Assembly (NCBI RefSeq): GCF_036227605.1 | Contig: NZ_CP109487.1 | Location: forward strand, 8,419,001 to 8,483,000 | Reading direction: 5' to 3' | Origin: Streptomyces sp. NBC_01439 | GTDB lineage: Bacteria > Actinomycetota > Actinomycetes > Streptomycetales > Streptomycetaceae | DNA: 64,000 bases | Shown here: positions 50,677 to 57,676 of the stretch, one piece after another | Layout of the letters: each line of letters begins with the position of its first letter | Position numbering within the stretch: the stretch's first letter is position 1 | Translations under genes and position numbers: made by a program | The notes under the pieces: model-generated | The model's database searches: none | Seen by the model: the letters and a program-made list of their open reading frames with translations, nothing else | What the model was told of the DNA's origin: nothing

Positions 50677-51150
50677 TCACCGCCGTTCGCTGGCCAGGAG
50701 CACCTTCAGCTTCGGCGACGCGAGGACGTCCCGCTCGCAGAAGCGTGCCGTGTCCCAGCGCTCCTCGGAGTACATCCGGGTTCGGTCGGCGCAGTAGGGC
50801 GAGGGCGGGTCCGAGGACCGGCTGTACGTCAGCAGGGTGCGGGCCACGGGACAGCGGCCGCCGTCCCAGCCGACCGCCTGGATGCGGCTGGACCCGTGCG
50901 TGACTTCCGGGTGGCCGCAGGCCGCCGCGCTCCACGGCGCCTCGATCCAGTTCCGGACGCCGAGCGCCTTTGTACCGTCGCCCACCGGGAGCTCGTGTTC
51001 GCCCCGGACCACGAACTGGTGCTCGCCCAGCGGGGCGTCCGGCGCGATCCCGGCCGCCTTCAACTCCGCCACCGCGTCCGCGAGTGCCCGCCCGATGCCG
51101 GGCGCCGTCCGGTTGAGGGTACGGGGGGTGCGTACGGGGTCGGCCGCTGC
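50677..51150 (-). pseudogene. C-terminal remnant of a penicillin-acylase-family protein
   Basis: About 155 codons matching the end of actinobacterial penicillin acylase/AHL acylase beta chains: D-P-V-R-T-P-R-T-L-N, then A-P-L-G-E-H-Q-F-V-V-R-G, then H-G-S-S-R-I-Q-A-V-G-W-D-G-G-R-C-P-V-A-R-T-L-L-T-Y-S, and finally R-F-C-E-R-D-V-L-A-S-P-K-L-K-V. The alpha chain, the autocatalytic N-terminal Ser of the beta chain and most of the barrel are missing. Upstream of about 51150 the frame runs antisense through another gene remnant. Non-functional. Confidence 0.75.
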
Positions 51151-51159
51151 CAGATCACC

Positions 51160-51390
51160 GGCCGGCACCTGGTTCCCGAACTGCTGCTCTTGCAGGCCGC
51201 CCGCGGCGAGTCCCCCACCCGCTACCTCGGCGACATCGCCTGACGCCATGGGGAGTATCGACGGCCGCGTCCCCGAAGGCGCCACCCCACCCGGCGCGGC
51301 TACCTCCACGACCGCCTGAACCTCTACACGGCCCCAGCACCCATCTCGCTGCCCCCGCAGCAGCCCTCCGCCGAGACCTCGACCGAGTGA
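51160..51390 (+). pseudogene. C-terminal remnant of an unidentified gene, interrupted by a stop
   Basis: Plus-strand frame H-L-V-P-E-L-L-L-L-Q-A-A-R-G-E-S-P-T-R-Y-L-G-D-I-A, then TGA at 51241, then in the same frame R-H-G-E-Y-R-R-P-R-P and R-G-Y-L-H-D-R-L-N-L-Y-T-A-P to a TGA at about 51390. The composition is protein-like on both sides of the stop, so a TGG-to-TGA change is plausible. It overlaps and abuts the penicillin-acylase remnant, marking a rearrangement point. Family unknown. The gap to the NACHT gene (51391-51492) holds nothing recognisable. Confidence 0.4.
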
Positions 51391-51492
51391 ACCTCAATAC
51401 TGAACCACGGCTGCTCCACCACGACCTCCAGCCCGGACACTTCGTCCCGCACCGCTCGTGTTGGGTGGCACAAGAAGAACCGCCGACCCGGT

Positions 51493-53991
51493 CTATTCGC
51501 CCGGCTGGCTCCAGTACTTCCGCGTCAGTGCAGCCAGCATGGCCGCGTCCCACCCTTTTTCCGGCAAGTGAACATTCGAGGCTTCAGTGAGTGGATTGCG
51601 CGCGCCCTCCCCCCGGTCTACTGCTTGCTGTGAATCTATCGGTGCAAAGACCTGATTCGCCGGCGCTTCGACTAAACCGCTTACGGGAACATTGAGCCGG
51701 CTCTCCGTGGTGGCCTGGGTTAGCTTGGCTACCCTTTGGGCAATCGAGGATGCGAACTCTTGGGCGTCATGCCGCGCTTTCCCGGACTGGGATATTCGCT
51801 GTAGGAGTTCGAATGTAACATCGGGATCCAGATGCCCGAGAGCTTGGATTGCTGTCGTGAACTCTACAGGGGTGTACTTCGCGGTCGACGCCATTTCGGA
51901 GAAGGCTTCCAGCATTCTGACGGCGACACCTCGCAGCTCGTCCACGTTGGCCAGCGCTTCCATGGCCTGGACTCGTGCACCGAACTCGGCCTTGCGGTCT
52001 GTGGCCAGGTGGTACAGCGCCACCGTGCCGTCAGGGGTGCCCAGTCGGACCAGGGCGCGGGCTGCGGTCAGACGCTCGCCATCATCAAGCGAACGATCTC
52101 TGACGCGGCCGTTCAGATGTTGGATCTGCTCGCGATCCTGCGCTTCGTTGAGTAGCCACTGTTGGAGCGCCCGGTGCCGAAACTGGTAGGTGCGTCCTGT
52201 CGTGCGCAGCAGCCCTGCGCGATGGGCCCAAGCAAGGAAGTGAGCCAGGCGGAGGGGCACCATGCCCCGATGAACGCCTACAGCAATGGATGCCAAGTAC
52301 CGCATCCATGCCCGGCCGACAACGTACGGCAGTACCGCCAGGGCCAAAATCCAGGCGACTTCGACCCAGAGCAGCGCACACGAGCCGACAACGCTGATGA
52401 TCAGCACGCTGACGAGCGCGTCCTGCCGCAGTGGGGCGCTCGGCCTCAGTACCGGCTCCGTGTCAGCCTCGACGATGGGGGTCGGAATGAACTGAATTGC
52501 CACCGCGGAGGCCGCCACCAACAGGTAGCCGACCAGGATGAGCGCGTTCATTCCCAGACTGACCAATGCTGCTTGGCCCCAGCTGCGGGACGGGAACAGC
52601 AATTTGTGGAGCAACGTAGCGCCAACCAGAATGGCAAGCGCTCCCCATCCGACCCAGGGCAGGATCTGTCGACTTAATGAACCCTTCAGCTGGAACTTCC
52701 AACCCTCCCGATCGACTCGATGCATGACATCCCAGAAGGGTTCGCCTGCGTGGTGTTTTCTTGGCCTCAGGCGGATGAGTCGGATCGGCTCGCTGGAATG
52801 CCCTATGCCCGCAAGCGCGAGTCCCAGGATCCAGGCCAGGCGGGAGAAATCTTCGGGTGACGTGAGGGGGAGCAGCCCGCTGAAAACCAGAAAAAATACG
52901 ACCCCGTGAAGCGCCACCACGCGCTTACGCCCGACGACGGACTCAAGCCGATGCAGCATGATGTCTACGGCGGGGCCGCTGCGGTCATTGTTGTTCGGGT
53001 GCGCTGCGTGGACGGCGAACGAAGTGAGCCACCGTTTCGTCCGGACGGCATCGTAGCGCGGGTGCGGTGAGGTACCGACGGCGACGGGTATGAGCCTCTC
53101 CAGGAGGAGGCGGTCGATGTCTCCCGGAGCAGTGAGAGTCAGCAAGTCTCGTGGGTCTCGCCCTCCGGAATAGACGGTCGTGGCCAAATAGAGCTGCCAC
53201 GGAGTGCACAGGGCCCCGGCAGGGAGCTGGTGCAGATTGTCGATGACCTCAGCCCACGCGCGTCTTTCACCCTCGGAGCGTGCGGCGAGGGCCTGCTCGA
53301 GGTAACAGCGGACCTGCTCGGTGTCGAGTTCTTCGACTTTGGCCACGGCTGCTGAGGCAAGTCCTCCGTGATCGCGGCTTAGCCGCTCGTATGTCGTGGG
53401 GCGGCAGGTCACCACGAGTGGCGCAACGCCTCGCGGACCGTGGTAGCGGTTGATCTGATCCAGGCCGCGCGCCGCTCGCATGGAGGAGCCGGCCTCGCCA
53501 TCCATCTCATCGAGGCCGTCGAGGACGGGCAGAATCAGACGTTGGGCCACCAACGCCTCTGCCAGGCGCGGGCGGACGCTGTACGTGTCGCTGATCTGCC
53601 GCACCAGCCAGTGTTCCAGCGGTGTGTCAGGGTCCCACTCGGCGAGGGAGAGCCGAACGGGGACCGGTTGTTCAGGGCGTCGCCGCTCAAGTAGCAACAG
53701 CACGAGTTCGAGTGCCAGTACGGTCTTTCCTGCGCCAGCGGCCCCTGTGATGACCAGCCGTCCCTCAGGCAGGGCCGCATAAGCGTTGACCAGTTCGTTC
53801 AGCGTTCCTGTCACCGGATCGCCAGGACCTCGAAGGAGAGTCACCCTGACGGTAAACGGAACGTCCGCTGCGGTCGCTGCAGGTCCCAGCAAGCTGCTGC
53901 GCGCGGTGCGTTCCACCACCACGACCTTCTGGGAGAGCCGGGTCGCTTGCCTCATCAGCGCCACTGCTGCCGGCTCGGCGTAGTAAGCCAC
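51493..53991 (-). CDS. NACHT-type STAND NTPase with membrane helices
   Basis: 832 residues from GTG 53991, and probably longer: the frame continues upstream without stop to a CTG at 54087 that overlaps the stop of the preceding gene (CTGA). Walker A G83-A-A-G-A-G-K-T90, Walker B L-I-L-P-V-L-D-G-L-D-E-M (about 152-163), and sensor-type V-V-T-C-R-P-T-T-Y, as in NACHT domains. About five to six transmembrane helices lie around residues 345-590, then R-F-R-H-R-A-L-Q-Q-W-L and helical repeats with HEAT-like spacing to the end. Such proteins are candidate signal-transduction or anti-phage ATPases. The region is less GC-biased at third positions than its neighbours. Confidence 0.85.
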   Translation of the reverse strand: MAYYAEPAAVALMRQATRLSQKVVVVERTARSSLLGPAATAADVPFTVRVTLLRGPGDPVTGTLNELVNAYAALPEGRLVITGAAGAGKTVLALELVLLLLERRRPEQPVPVRLSLAEWDPDTPLEHWLVRQISDTYSVRPRLAEALVAQRLILPVLDGLDEMDGEAGSSMRAARGLDQINRYHGPRGVAPLVVTCRPTTYERLSRDHGGLASAAVAKVEELDTEQVRCYLEQALAARSEGERRAWAEVIDNLHQLPAGALCTPWQLYLATTVYSGGRDPRDLLTLTAPGDIDRLLLERLIPVAVGTSPHPRYDAVRTKRWLTSFAVHAAHPNNNDRSGPAVDIMLHRLESVVGRKRVVALHGVVFFLVFSGLLPLTSPEDFSRLAWILGLALAGIGHSSEPIRLIRLRPRKHHAGEPFWDVMHRVDREGWKFQLKGSLSRQILPWVGWGALAILVGATLLHKLLFPSRSWGQAALVSLGMNALILVGYLLVAASAVAIQFIPTPIVEADTEPVLRPSAPLRQDALVSVLIISVVGSCALLWVEVAWILALAVLPYVVGRAWMRYLASIAVGVHRGMVPLRLAHFLAWAHRAGLLRTTGRTYQFRHRALQQWLLNEAQDREQIQHLNGRVRDRSLDDGERLTAARALVRLGTPDGTVALYHLATDRKAEFGARVQAMEALANVDELRGVAVRMLEAFSEMASTAKYTPVEFTTAIQALGHLDPDVTFELLQRISQSGKARHDAQEFASSIAQRVAKLTQATTESRLNVPVSGLVEAPANQVFAPIDSQQAVDRGEGARNPLTEASNVHLPEKGWDAAMLAALTRKYWSQPGE

Positions 53992-54083
53992 GCTGGCGGC
54001 CTGGCCGACAGCAAGCCCACCGTGAGTGGCAGTGATGGCAGTGCGGGAATGGATGTGAGGGGCGTGGGTGTCGCCGGACGCGC

Positions 54084-54554
54084 TCAGCCCTGATGCGGGC
54101 CCGGCAACGGAGGGTTACCCAGAGTCACATCCCTCATCTGTAACGCCGCCACTCCATGGTCGACATGGATACTCACATCGCCGCCAACAGCAAGGCCGCC
54201 GTCTCCCGCAGATACCGTGCGGGGAGCGTCTCGTGCATTCAGGATGGCCCGCAGAGCACGGGCTGCCACCTCCCGCTCCTGGTCATCAAGGCTCTCAAGT
54301 GCCGTTTCGAACCGTGCTTGCCAAACAGCCTGCTCACCGAGCCGGACCCGCGCGATGTCTTCGTCACCTGCGGCATCGAGCGCTGCCGCGCTCTGCCCCA
54401 GGCGTTCCAGCACGGCGCGTTCTCGTGACTCTTGCCCGCGGCCGAACCAGCGAGCGACTTCCTGCTGAAGGCCCTGCCACAAGCTGCTTCCCGCAGCTTG
54501 CACCACGGCGGTTCCGCCGGCCGCTGCCAACGCCGTAAGTGCTTCTCCCAGCAT
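54084..54554 (-). CDS. small conserved partner of the NACHT protein
   Basis: 156 residues from ATG 54554. The N-terminus is a small-residue-rich helix (L-G-E-A-L-T-A-L-A-A-A-G-G-T-A-V-V-Q-A-A-G) followed by L-W-Q-G-L-Q-Q-E-V-A-R-W-F-G-R-G. The centre is a coiled-coil-like helical stretch, and the end is a short beta segment G-G-L-A-V-G-G-D-V-S-I-H-V-D-H-G. The G-G-L-A-V-G element recurs in the stretch upstream of the annotated NACHT start, linking the two proteins. Translationally coupled to the NACHT frame. Function unknown; a sensor or effector-adaptor is an inference. Confidence 0.7.
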   Translation of the reverse strand: MLGEALTALAAAGGTAVVQAAGSSLWQGLQQEVARWFGRGQESRERAVLERLGQSAAALDAAGDEDIARVRLGEQAVWQARFETALESLDDQEREVAARALRAILNARDAPRTVSAGDGGLAVGGDVSIHVDHGVAALQMRDVTLGNPPLPGPHQG

Positions 54555-54896
54555 TCACTGCCCCGTTCGTCAGACGCGTGACAGTCGTGACCGTAGCGCT
54601 ACACGCTGTTCACCGACAGCGCTTCCACCAGAAGTGCCATCAGGCGAGGGCGCCTACCATGCACTCCACCAGCCGCGATCAGACTCGCAACAGCTGCGCA
54701 CATGAGCACGAGCTGAGGAGACGCGTCACCTGAGCCCGAGTCAGAGGCGAGCCGATCAATCATCTTCGGAGGCCAGCACTCCGAGACTGGTGAGCTTCCC
54801 GCCGGGAGGGGGACCGCGCGAGGGCGGGGCGCAGCGCGCACGATTGCGGGGCGGAGCCGTTGCACACCGAAGCCTGGTTTGCGCAATCACTGCGCA
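54555..54896. promoter_or_regulatory. promoter region of the NACHT pair
   Basis: 340 bp with no gene. It contains the 10-bp palindrome GTAGCGCTAC near 54592 and three TGCGCA/TTCGCA-like words spaced about 12 bp between 54872 and 54904. No clear -10/-35 pair. A 95-codon reverse frame here is not convincing. Confidence 0.35.
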
Positions 54897-55179
54897 TCAT
54901 TCGCAGACATGGCGCATCGATCCGCAGGTCCTAGATCGGGCCAGCTGTCGAATGAGGTGCTGGGCCCGCAGTTCGAGGTCGCTCCTCAGCTCGGGATGGT
55001 GGCCGCGGGCGGCGACTTGGAGCAACTGCGCGAGCGCGACGAGTTCACCGATCCGGCCGTGGGGGGTGTCGAGGACGTGAGCGAACTCCTTCCGGATCCG
55101 TGCGGCCGTGCGTGGTGCGGCCAGGCCGTAGGCGTGGAGGAGCCCCTCGTCGTAGCCGCGGGGAACGGCGCCGCCGGGT
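54897..55179 (-). pseudogene. aminoglycoside-phosphotransferase-like gene, 3' part (after the intron)
   Basis: Reads G-A-V-P-R-G-Y-D-E-G-L-L-H-A-Y-G-L-A-A-P, then helices to R-A-Q-H-L-I-R-Q-L-A-R and a stop at 54897. In APH-fold kinases this segment directly follows the D-W-E-x-W metal-binding loop that ends the other part of the gene at about 57677. The two parts are separated by a group II intron in sense orientation, so splicing could restore a continuous reading frame of about 290 codons. The exact join could not be fixed. Confidence 0.7.
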
Positions 55180-55213
55180 AACCCCGGCGCATTGCTGCGC
55201 CGGGGTCCCCTCA

Positions 55214-55248
55214 GAACCGTGCGTGCACCTCGTCGATGCACACGGCTC
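55214..55248 (-). ncRNA. group II intron domain V
   Basis: On the reverse strand the sequence starts GAGCCGTGTGCATCGA and ends GTGCACGCACGGTTC, which folds into the 34-nt domain V hairpin with its catalytic AGC triad (here within GAGCCG) and a two-base bulge. This is the most conserved part of the ribozyme and confirms the intron. Confidence 0.85.
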
Positions 55249-55267
55249 AAGCAAGCCACGAGGGCGT

Positions 55268-56995
55268 TCAGGTGGTGCTGTTCCGAATACGAGCGGCGTG
55301 TCGCCGTGCGCATTCAGCGTGTACCAAGCGGGTTTGATCGCCTTGCGGCGTCATCCTCCCCGTGTGCCGAAGGTAATCGACAGAGATCGCCTTGCGGGCG
55401 ATCACTTTCCACCAGCGTTCCCATTCCAACGGGGATTGCGGTGGCTGGTGGGGAGTCAGGACATTTTCCCCGCACAGCGGGCAGCGTCCCTCCTGCCGGT
55501 CGAGCAGGCGGAGGTTGTAGCTGTCGAGTGCGGGCTTGACCCTGCGACGACGCTTGACCCAGTACTCAGTCAGGGCGGGGTCGTCTGGTGACGCCGCGCC
55601 CTTGACCAGGGTGTGTCGGACGATCTGCGTCCAGGACGACTTGACCAGGAAGGTGCCGCTGTCGCGGTCACCGAAGACCCAGTGGTCGTTCCTGAACTTG
55701 TTGTACTTGCCGAAGTACCGTCCGGAGATCCAGTGCTTCGACTTCTTGGGGTGCTGGTAGCAGGCCCACTTGTAGGTCAGCTTCCACATGTGGATGTCGA
55801 TGTCCTTGAAGACCTCGGCAGCCACCACCCCTCGGTAGTAGGCAGCCCAGCCCCGGATGATGGGGTTGAGTTTGACGATGACCGCCTTCTCGTTGGATCC
55901 GCGCAAGTCGCGCATCACTTCCGAGAGCCGTTCCCGATGCCGCTTGACGGCGGCCTTGCTCGGCTTAATCAGCAGCTTGCCCACCGGATAGCGGCGGATG
56001 TTGAAGCCCAGAAAGTCAAAGCCGTCTTCGAGGTGGACAACCCGCGTCTTCTCCTCGTTGAAGGCCAGGCCCCTCGGCTTCAGCCACTCGGCAAGCTGTG
56101 CCTTGACCTCGTGCACCTGCTGCTCGGTGAAGCAGCACACGACGAAGTCGTCTGCGTATCTGACCAGCACCGCAGAATCCGGGCGCGTCTTTCCCGTCGC
56201 CTTGTGGGACGGGGCAGTTGCGAGTCGGACTCCAGCCGCCTCCTCCAAGCCGTTCAGCGCGACGTTCAACAGCAGAGGACTGATCACACCCCCCTGCGGG
56301 GTGCCCTCCTTCGTCGGAGAGAACCCCATACCGGGCTCGAACACCCCGGCCCTCAACCATTGCCCGATCTGCCTCCGGCCCGGGAACATCCCAAGCGCGG
56401 AGAGCAACCGGTCATGGTCGATCCTGTCGAACGCCGCAGACAGGTCTGCATCCAGAATCCACACCCGCGTTGAGCCCTTGCGGAGCGTGGTGAAGAGCAT
56501 CTCGATCGCGTCCTGGCAGCCTCGGCCCGGACGAAACCCGTAGGAACGGGATTCGAACCTGGCCTCCCACTCGGGCTCCAGGGCATTGCGTACCCGGCCC
56601 TGATGGCACCGGTCGACAATGACTGGAATTCCCAGTGGGCGCTGCTTTCCGTTGGCCTTGGGGATATACACCCGCTTCACAGGCAGGGGCTTCCAGGTGC
56701 CACGGCCTTGGTGCACCTGCACCGCGACCTTGGCCCGATCCTCGGAGGTCAGAGCAACCACCCCGTCCACCCCGGCCGTGACGCGGCCAGCATTACGCTG
56801 CGTCGCCTGCCGCACACTCAACAACGTGTTCGACCGACTCCGCAGCATCAACCTTTGCAGGTTCCGGACTCGCGCCCAGTCCTGCTCCTGAGTCGCCTTG
56901 AAGATCCTCTGCCGCAGTCGCTGTACTTTGAGCTCGCAGGCACGCCAATCCATCGCGTCCCAGTCGATCCCATCGTCCTCGGGTCCGTTCACCAT
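55268..56995 (-). CDS. ltrA: group II intron reverse transcriptase/maturase (LtrA-type)
   Basis: 575 residues. Reverse-transcriptase blocks: R-P-L-G-I-P (RT2), F-R-P-G-R-G-C-Q-D-A-I (RT2a/3), D-A-D-L-S-A-A-F-D-R-I-D-H (RT3), G-T-P-Q-G-G-V-I-S-P-L-L-L-N (RT4), R-Y-A-D-D-F-V-V (RT5 catalytic YADD), G-L-A-F-N-E-E-K-T-R (RT6) and F-L-G-F-N (RT7). Maturase domain X contains R-G-W-A-A-Y-Y-R. The C-terminal HNH endonuclease has C-P-L-C-G-E and a later H-A-E-C. Full length, with no frameshift. It binds the intron RNA for splicing and mobility. Confidence 0.95.
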   Translation of the reverse strand: MVNGPEDDGIDWDAMDWRACELKVQRLRQRIFKATQEQDWARVRNLQRLMLRSRSNTLLSVRQATQRNAGRVTAGVDGVVALTSEDRAKVAVQVHQGRGTWKPLPVKRVYIPKANGKQRPLGIPVIVDRCHQGRVRNALEPEWEARFESRSYGFRPGRGCQDAIEMLFTTLRKGSTRVWILDADLSAAFDRIDHDRLLSALGMFPGRRQIGQWLRAGVFEPGMGFSPTKEGTPQGGVISPLLLNVALNGLEEAAGVRLATAPSHKATGKTRPDSAVLVRYADDFVVCCFTEQQVHEVKAQLAEWLKPRGLAFNEEKTRVVHLEDGFDFLGFNIRRYPVGKLLIKPSKAAVKRHRERLSEVMRDLRGSNEKAVIVKLNPIIRGWAAYYRGVVAAEVFKDIDIHMWKLTYKWACYQHPKKSKHWISGRYFGKYNKFRNDHWVFGDRDSGTFLVKSSWTQIVRHTLVKGAASPDDPALTEYWVKRRRRVKPALDSYNLRLLDRQEGRCPLCGENVLTPHQPPQSPLEWERWWKVIARKAISVDYLRHTGRMTPQGDQTRLVHAECARRHAARIRNSTT

Positions 56996-57676
56996 AGGTG
57001 CCTAACTTGTCCCTCAGTTCCAGTGCCATGACACAAAATCATCAAAGGCTCACCTGTCCACGTCAGCCCGCTTTCACGTCCGGGCGCCAGGCCCGGTATC
57101 CGACCGGTTATCCACGGCAGCCGGCGGAGGACCGACTCTATTGCCGCAGTTTCCCGTCTCCTTTCGGCAGTCGGCATTCGCTTCTTGGACATCCTGTTCC
57201 CACCCGGGAGTTCAGCTCTCCTCGCGGTCGGCCTACCGCCGCTAGCCATCAGCGACGGACCCGGATGGGGTTTCCACGTTCCGCACACATGAGATGCGAC
57301 CGGGTTCGGGTGCCCTCTGTACCCCGAGGTCAGCGGTACTCTCGCAACCGGCAAATGGTCACCGGTCGCCGCCTGCCGCTCCTCCACGGCATAGACCCTG
57401 CACCCCGGAATCACTTCCATCCATCCGAGGTTTCTGGGTAACGAGGCATCATCGAGGGTTCACTGGTGTTCACCCACCCGGCCTTCCCCTACTCCGCGCC
57501 GCGGATGGATCGAGGCACGGTTCGCATGTTCCCTGAGCTTCGAACCCCGGGATTACTCCCAGCGCACGTCAGGGCGGGGACGGGCATCGAGTACTAGCCC
57601 GAGATCACGGAGCAGGCATACGCCCACCCTCCTCTCCCGTGATCCGCTCATATTGTGCGACCTCGTGTCGCAACCA

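What the first reader, a model, noticed from the sequence alone, without database searches (positions are those of the whole stretch)
51493..54554. Two-gene NACHT system coupled through a possible CTG start
A small helical protein and a membrane-associated NACHT ATPase with a repeat-rich C-terminus overlap by CTGA. The stretch upstream of the annotated GTG contains G-G-L-A-V-G, also present in the partner, so the NACHT protein probably starts at the CTG at 54087. The codon bias is weaker than in neighbours, suggesting horizontal transfer. Membrane-associated NACHT systems with this partner are a plausible defence or cell-death module.
Basis: partly seen in the sequence, partly recalled or inferred. 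Interest (0 to 1): 0.75.

Follow-up and report, generated by a model that had tools for sequence, protein, structure and literature searches.

The report
Immune-sensor gene pair with CTG-start hairpin
Two overlapping Streptomyces genes look like a bacterial cell-death or immunity pair (a sensor and its executioner) that share a short matching motif, and the sensor seems to start at an unusual CTG codon inside a conserved RNA hairpin, which would hide the motif from gene annotation.

Summary
The 156-aa protein (54554-54084, -) is a five-helix domain plus a disordered tail. The downstream NACHT protein (54087-51493, -) overlaps it by CTGA. The tail of one and the head of the other carry related motifs. 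This is the architecture published for bacterial NLR/effector pairs proposed to signal by amyloid templating (Bell domain + BASS motif). The match to numbered BASS families could not be tested.

New here: among 81 non-duplicate loci with this motif class, the overlap codon is CTG in 73. In a sister class it is ATG or GTG in 19 of 20. The effector's last glycine codon is GGC in 60 of 61, against 18-64% at seven other conserved glycines of the same genes, so CTG is being kept. The stop and CTG sit in the loop of a hairpin with compensatory changes, not found in the sister class or in one natural fusion. RefSeq starts the sensor 14-84 residues downstream of the CTG in 6 of 6 annotated plasmid pairs examined.

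Best reading: hairpin-controlled, weak CTG reinitiation couples scarce sensor to abundant effector. Six loci with CTA or TTA at the overlap leave -1 recoding open. The function (defence, cell death) is inferred only.

The parts
54084..54554 (-). small effector-like protein P0002 (156 aa, ATG): helical domain residues 1-109, disordered tail 110-156
   Evidence: 527 homologues
54114..54218 (-). C-terminal motif of the effector (residues 113-147, RTVSAGDGGLAVGGDVSIHVDHGVAALQMRDVTLGNP)
   Evidence: conserved in alignment A1; class-A tail profile matches class-A NLR head profile, E 2.2e-5
54073..54105 (-). conserved hairpin: 5' arm 54105-54095, loop with stop and CTG 54094-54084, 3' arm 54083-54073
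   Evidence: covariation; window fold -24.3 kcal/mol, z -2.97, 3 of 200 dinucleotide shuffles as good; best R1 match of the genome, 46.6 bits, next 29.2 (this locus is in the training alignment)
54084..54087 (-). CTGA: CTG (54087-54085) overlapping the effector's TGA stop (54086-54084)
51493..54087 (-). NACHT NLR-like protein P0001 read from the CTG (864 aa)
53974..54045 (-). N-terminal motif of the NLR (residues 15-38, RTAITATHGGLAVGQAASVAYYAE), cut by a start at GTG 53991
53284..53757 (-). NACHT domain (residues 111-268)
   Evidence: PF05729 46 bits
52363..52920 (-). hydrophobic region with predicted membrane segments (residues 390-575)
   Evidence: Kyte-Doolittle

Best explanation
This is a two-gene NLR/effector signalling pair of the bacterial amyloid-signalling (Bell + BASS) type. 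Shown by sequence: a small helical protein with a C-terminal motif overlaps an NLR (NACHT or NB-ARC) gene whose N-terminus, read from a CTG in the overlap, carries a related motif; CTG is kept by selection; a covarying hairpin encloses the stop and the CTG. Inferred: ribosomes ending the effector open the hairpin and a small fraction restart at CTG, so the sensor is made only together with the effector and in low amount. An unknown trigger makes the NLR oligomerise, its clustered head motifs seed an ordered (probably amyloid) form, and the tails of effectors copy it. The effector domain, with its Gly/Ala-rich first helix, then damages the membrane and kills or stops the cell, as a defence or cell-death module.
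For: Most partner genes scanned are NLRs. Head and tail motifs match within a class (class A E 2.2e-5; class B E 9e-15) and not across classes (E 0.67 and 0.44). CTG 73 of 81 in class A against ATG/GTG 19 of 20 in class B. GGC 60 of 61 at the last Gly against 0.18-0.64 at seven other conserved Gly columns. Effector stop non-TGA 6 of 81 against 14 of 54 for NLR stops, p 0.005. Hairpin: PGP subclass 8 of 11 pairs with two-sided changes, covariation 0.240 against 0.113 shuffled and at most 0.084 slid. Folding z (mononucleotide shuffles) dips at the junction in class A (-1.69) and not in class B (-0.13). 8 of 8 plasmid loci outside the model have CTGA and an R1 match. A natural fusion (L112) with both motifs in one frame has no R1 match. 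A second effector family with class-A-like tails also shows CTG: 7 of 9, with 1 GTG and 1 CTA.
Against: L014, L043, L058, L171 and L203 have CTA and L136 has TTA at the overlap; the first five keep the hairpin, and L171 has no ATG/GTG/TTG before the motif. A codon-substitution test over the motif alone does not single out the NLR frame (0.82 against 0.81 and 1.17). Single-pair head-tail similarity in class A is weak (17 of 81 pairs at the 1% level). Covariation in the bulged hairpin subclass is barely above slid controls (0.083 against up to 0.081). The excess of G-U pairs over A-C mismatches, expected of an RNA stem, is not significant once loci are chosen without counting G-U (15 to 7, p 0.07; all loci and columns 22 to 21). 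P0002 has no window of high hydropathy. Amyloid formation, killing and phage defence are untested.
Confidence: 0.6

Rival explanations
1. The hairpin programmes a -1 recoding event at the effector's stop, so the NLR is made mainly or partly as an effector-NLR fusion and CTG is read as leucine, not as a start.
For: CTA or TTA at the overlap with the frame open in L014, L043, L058, L136, L171 and L203, five of them with the hairpin kept; the natural in-frame fusion L112 shows that a fusion is tolerated.
Against: The last effector codon varies (GGC, GAC, GCC, CCC, CGC, AAC, AGC), so no common slippery codon. The sister class uses ATG or GTG at the same place. In L077 the effector ends 7 codons before the usual stop, with CTG and hairpin sequence still there. 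In 5 of 6 loci without NTG at the overlap another start lies before the motif, against 28 of 76 CTG loci, p 0.036. The hairpin lies around, not downstream of, the shift site.
Confidence: 0.15
2. The shared motif is an ordinary protein-protein adaptor (for example a beta-strand or coil docking element) and not an amyloid template; the rest of the pathway is as above.
For: No amyloid predictor or experiment was run here; class-A head-tail similarity is modest.
Against: Position (NLR N-terminus, effector C-terminus), overlapping genes and short shared motif match the published amyloid pairs (passages of PMC7889193); the tail is predicted disordered.
Confidence: 0.2
3. The inverted repeat acts at DNA level (recombination site for swapping NLR and effector modules, or a protein-binding site), not in RNA.
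For: The same kind of tail, repeat and head occur behind two effector domains with no detected relation, so modules have been exchanged near here. G-U pairs do not clearly exceed A-C mismatches (all loci 22 to 21).
Against: Both arms change together rather than keeping fixed half-sites. The repeat is centred on the stop/start, and R1 finds it neither in the one fused gene nor at class-B junctions.
Confidence: 0.1
4. The NACHT gene starts at the GTG at 53991 and the upstream frame is not translated.
For: It is the first ATG/GTG/TTG in the frame; the motif-only substitution test is not decisive.
Against: The upstream 32 codons align as protein with relatives (tblastn hits of P0001 residues 1-38, 1-36 and 8-50 to L031, L034 and L004); CTG is conserved; 48 of 76 CTG loci have the motif upstream of any ATG/GTG/TTG.
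Confidence: 0.05

Closest known systems
Bell domain + BASS amyloid-signalling NLR pairs of multicellular bacteria (Dyrka et al. 2020; not held, seen only through passages of PMC7889193, PMC8086366 and PMC12261475)
   Same: adjacent or overlapping genes; motif at the C-terminus of a small helical effector and at the N-terminus of an NLR; actinobacteria
   Different: the numbered BASS family was not testable; the conserved CTG start and the stop/start hairpin are not mentioned in the passages read
Fungal HET-S/NWD2, HELLF/FNT1 and HELLP/PNT1 pairs (passages of PMC7885112)
   Same: two-gene effector/NLR cluster with a shared short motif, NLR with NACHT+WD or NB-ARC+TPR
   Different: no sequence relation tested; the fungal genes are adjacent with intergenic distances, not overlapping
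Translationally coupled NTGA gene pairs (review PMC12548453, passages)
   Same: -4 nt spacing, stop and start overlapping; structure around the downstream start known in some pairs
   Different: a family-wide conserved CTG and a covarying hairpin enclosing the overlap; 'CUG' does not occur in that review's main text
bNACHT anti-phage proteins (PMC12169576, listing and abstract start only)
   Same: NACHT domain
   Different: here a separate effector gene and a membrane-spanning region; no phage test; no PADLOC model matches convincingly

Membership tests
Bell/BASS amyloid-signalling pair | NLR (NACHT or NB-ARC) gene adjacent to or overlapping a small effector gene | tested here: met
   relatives
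Bell/BASS amyloid-signalling pair | similar short motif at effector C-terminus and NLR N-terminus | tested here: met
   14 of 5000 shuffles for the window's pair; class-specific profile match
[quoted passage not shown]
   five helices predicted, first helix residues 2-20 Gly/Ala-rich, but no 19-residue window of P0002 reaches 1.6 on the Kyte-Doolittle scale
Bell/BASS amyloid-signalling pair | match to a BASS1-10 profile | not testable with these tools
   profiles and the source paper are not held
Bell/BASS amyloid-signalling pair | motif forms and templates amyloid | not testable with these tools
   needs peptides
Translationally coupled overlapping pair | NTGA stop/start overlap | tested here: met
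   CTGA at 54087-54084
Translationally coupled overlapping pair | downstream synthesis depends on upstream translation | not testable with these tools
   needs reporters
Known anti-phage system (PADLOC) | match to a system model | tested here: not met
   only two weak ATPase-region hits for P0001, E 0.0026 and 0.042; none for P0002
Rfam RNA family | match at the junction | tested here: not met
   no match with E up to 1 at 54073-54105 (window 51000-57600)

The most novel reading that the evidence does not exclude
A new class of translation-control RNA element: a hairpin around an effector's stop codon that forces very weak non-AUG (CUG) reinitiation, or -1 recoding, on the next gene, and so sets the sensor-to-effector ratio in a widespread family of bacterial prion-like immune pairs. 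It travels with the signalling motif rather than with the effector domain, and it has kept the sensor's amyloid-type head out of gene annotation.
Probability: 0.45. Interest if true: 0.82.

Novelty: new variant of a known kind. Interest (0 to 1): 0.66.

Why it matters
If CTG initiation inside a hairpin is real, a whole family of bacterial NLR proteins is misannotated at the N-terminus, just where the signalling motif lies. That could help explain why published motif sets hold more effector-side than receptor-side sequences (994 against 181, PMC12261475 passages; the sets were built differently, so this is suggestive only). It would also be a rare case of selection holding a poor start codon where one silent change would give ATG or GTG. 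And it gives a simple handle (CTG to ATG, stem swaps) to test whether prion-like immune pairs need a scarce sensor.

Tried and rejected

Codon-substitution test: over codons 6 to motif+14, pN/pS is 0.72 in the NLR frame against 0.97 and 1.24 (100 pairs), but over the motif alone it does not discriminate (0.82, 0.81, 1.17; 362 pairs). A class-wide search of 296 genomes with the hairpin model gave 5 matches at E<=0.01, of which 2 (L176, L222) are not at such junctions. The strand test (G-U against A-C) first looked positive (15 to 5), but that choice of loci counted G-U as pairs; chosen without it the excess is 15 to 7 (p 0.07), and over all loci and columns 22 to 21, so I dropped it as support and raised the DNA-level rival from 0.08 to 0.10.

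A single slippery codon for -1 recoding was looked for and not found. A ribosome hop to a matching Gly codon was considered and dropped, because the third NLR residue is not always Gly.

Dropped rows: of 131 non-duplicate loci, 30 were left out of classes A and B by hand (no effector-NLR frame, masked bases, broken genes, other tails; listed). Among those 30, L015, L035, L038, L047 and L069 have class-A-like tails and CTG; L007 and L064 have class-A-like tails and ATG, with only 15 and 11 open codons after it. Five of 89 heads without a recognisable motif were left out of the start-codon count; 12 class-A loci were left out of the profile comparison. Classes A and B, in the second effector family too, were assigned by eye from printed tails; PDP/PGP subclasses by which register pairs better, so percent paired is partly circular and the shuffles and slides carry the weight. 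A GC3 value for the Na/Ca exchanger was out of frame and is replaced.
Full report
What is there. On the minus strand, a 156-aa protein (P0002, 54554-54084) is followed by a NACHT protein whose open frame runs to 51493. The two overlap by CTGA. In the NLR frame the CTG (54087-54085) is the only ATG/GTG/TTG/CTG between the frame's upstream stop and the GTG at 53991. Read from the CTG the NLR has 864 residues, with a NACHT domain at 111-268 (46 bits) and four hydrophobic segments between 390 and 575. HEAT-like repeats at the C-terminus are below significance. AlphaFold2 gives P0002 five confident helices (2-109) and a disordered tail (110-156).

Shared motif. The tail of P0002 (RTVSAGDGGLAVGGDVSIHVDHG...) and the head of the NLR (RTAITATHGGLAVGQAASVAYYAE) are similar; 14 of 5000 tail shuffles score as well. 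Across relatives the similarity of single pairs is weak in this motif class (17 of 81 pairs at the 1% level) and strong in a second class (20 of 20). Profiles of 69 tails and 69 heads of the window's class (A) match at E 2.2e-5. The second class (B), with another motif (GNTFHGPTAVQVGDHN), matches at E 9e-15 (20 tails, 20 heads), and tails of one class do not match heads of the other (E 0.67 and 0.44). So the motif goes in cognate pairs. This is the arrangement described for bacterial amyloid signalosomes: a motif at the N-terminus of an NLR and at the C-terminus of a small helical Bell protein, in adjacent or overlapping genes, mainly in actinobacteria and cyanobacteria (passages of PMC7889193; PMC8086366). 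The amyloid step is inferred from that resemblance, and the assignment to BASS1-10 could not be tested.

Distribution and partner genes. P0002 has 527 homologues at E<=0.001 and a match in 125 of 295 Streptomyces genomes, the window's own included. It occurs in 47 of 72,556 plasmid records and in no phage record at E 1e-5. Of 53 NLR partners scanned with Pfam (the window's and the 52 of 81 class-A loci with a complete frame of 300 codons or more), 37 match NB-ARC, 10 NACHT and 37 TPR_12. The window's NACHT-with-membrane-segments form is thus a minority receptor on a common effector.

The CTG. I collected 150 loci. 149 had an effector match and 131 were non-duplicate. 81 fall in the window's motif class (A), 20 in class B, and 30 were left out by hand. 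The codon overlapping the effector stop is CTG in 73 of 81 class-A loci (CTA 3, GTA 2, TTG 1, TTA 1, GTG 1). In class B it is ATG 13, GTG 6 and CTG 1, the last followed at once by ATG. The base that decides this is the third base of the effector's last codon. Where that codon is Gly it is GGC in 60 of 61 loci, while seven other conserved Gly columns of the same genes have GGC at 0.18-0.64. One silent change would give ATG, GTG or TTG, so CTG is being held. Effector stops are non-TGA in 6 of 81 loci against 14 of 54 for the NLR stops (p 0.005), as expected if NTG-A is needed. With 8 further loci added and 5 heads without a motif left out, 48 of 76 CTG loci offer no ATG, GTG or TTG between the CTG and the motif. 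These counts treat loci as independent; no tree was made.

The hairpin. The stop/start overlap lies in the loop of a hairpin with stem -19..-9 with +3..+13 around the stop (window 54105-54095 with 54083-54073). In the window it folds at -24.3 kcal/mol, z -2.97, with 3 of 200 dinucleotide shuffles as good; two plasmid loci folded beside it reach only z -1.05 and -0.93. Two forms exist: with and without a bulge at -14, each with the matching shift of the 3' arm; 68 of 81 loci have 8 or more pairs. In the bulge-free form (39 loci) 84.2% of cells pair, 8 of 11 pairs show changes on both sides, and the covariation score is 0.240 against 0.113 for shuffles and 0.084 or less when slid. In the bulged form (42 loci) 89.7% pair and covariation is 0.083 against 0.059 shuffled (4 of 500 reach it) and up to 0.081 when slid, so that subclass alone is weak on covariation. 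Folding z-scores along the genes (mononucleotide shuffles) dip at the junction in class A (mean -1.69; the 16 other offsets between -0.46 and +0.30). Class B shows no dip there (-0.13). G-U pairs do not significantly exceed A-C mismatches (15 to 7 in 72-73 well-paired loci without two weak columns, p 0.07; 22 to 21 over all 81 loci and columns), so the strand that acts is not settled by this. Rfam has no match at the junction.

Tests outside the training set. A covariance model (R1) from the 39 bulge-free loci was searched in 197 genomes of the order at E<=0.1: 40 matches in 36 genomes. Of 30 hit loci fetched, 17 lie at effector/NLR junctions, including 15 of the 16 with at least 38.9 bits; of the 14 weaker ones, 2 do. 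Six of those 16 carry the same hairpin sequence as training loci; among the other 10, 9 are at junctions. 8 of 8 plasmid loci taken (8 of the 9 best of 47 records) have CTGA and an R1 match of 32.8-55.7 bits at the junction. 0 of 20 class-B loci have an R1 match at the junction with E up to 0.5. A natural fusion (L112), where effector domain, both motifs and the NLR lie in one frame, has no R1 match either. A second effector family, with no detected relation in its N-terminal domain, was met through the hairpin (L169, L171-L175). Searched on its own (19 of 295 genomes, 23 loci), its 9 class-A-like loci have CTG in 7, GTG in 1 and CTA in 1; 6 of the 9 match R1 at E<=0.05. Two of these nine (L192, L193) are the same places as L148 and L146 in the set of 81. 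Its other-motif loci use ATG or GTG, or CTA followed by GTG (L198, L199, L202, L210, L211). So CTG and hairpin follow the motif, not the effector domain.

Annotation. In the 6 of 8 plasmid loci with an annotated in-frame NLR, RefSeq starts it 14-84 residues after the CTG, as the GTG at 53991 does by 32 residues here, which removes most of the head motif.

How it probably works. The mechanism is inferred. A hairpin over the overlap would stop independent initiation, and ribosomes finishing the effector open it. Reinitiation at a poor start codon with no good Shine-Dalgarno match (mean match 3.2 nt, against 4.1 before the effector and 2.0 before class-B NLR starts) would make little sensor per effector. 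RNA unfolding and ribosome scanning are the two proposed models of coupling, and NTGA is the commonest spacing (passages of PMC12548453). In signalling, NLR oligomers would seed the effectors' tails, as proposed for HET-S/NWD2 (passages of PMC7885112), and freed effector domains would damage the membrane. The last steps rest on analogy alone.

Against this reading. L014, L043, L058, L171 and L203 have CTA, and L136 TTA, at the overlap because the effector ends in TAA or TAG. The first five keep the hairpin, and L171 has no other start before the motif. L014, L043, L058, L136 and L124 have a GTG before the motif, so 5 of 6 loci without NTG in the set have an alternative, against 28 of 76 CTG loci (p 0.036). 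A -1 recoding event would explain CTA, but the last codon is too variable for a common slip site, and class B and L146 put ATG or GTG exactly there.

Print. In the held library, searches (listings only) showed no title on a conserved CTG start or a stop/start hairpin in such pairs; Dyrka et al. 2020, the source paper, was not available. The main text of the conserved-frame-transition survey PMC3711429 does not contain the words NB-ARC or CTG.

Noticed in passing
window 55173-57574, - strand: A group II intron (reverse transcriptase/maturase ORF 55268-56995; Rfam RF00029 at 55173-55250 and a weaker group-II match at 57532-57574) lies about 600 bp upstream of the effector gene.
   Followed up: partly
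L112: Natural in-frame fusion of effector domain, both motif copies and an NLR in one frame (951 aa), without an R1 hairpin match.
   Followed up: yes
L171, L203, L014, L043, L058: CTA instead of CTG at the overlap (effector stop TAA or TAG) with the hairpin kept; how the NLR is translated there is unexplained.
   Followed up: partly
L009 (L189): Effector gene with an in-frame TGA at codon 35, yet the junction hairpin and CTG are intact.
   Followed up: no
L169, L171-L175, L191-L213: A second small effector family carries the same kind of tail, hairpin and CTG, suggesting exchange of the effector domain upstream of a fixed signalling module.
   Followed up: partly
L138, L139: Class-B-like pairs share S[VI]QxGDHN in the effector and SVQIGNDN in the NLR, a pattern that recalls RHIM (recalled resemblance, not tested).
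   Followed up: no
L110: Two effector-like genes in opposite orientation in one locus.
   Followed up: no
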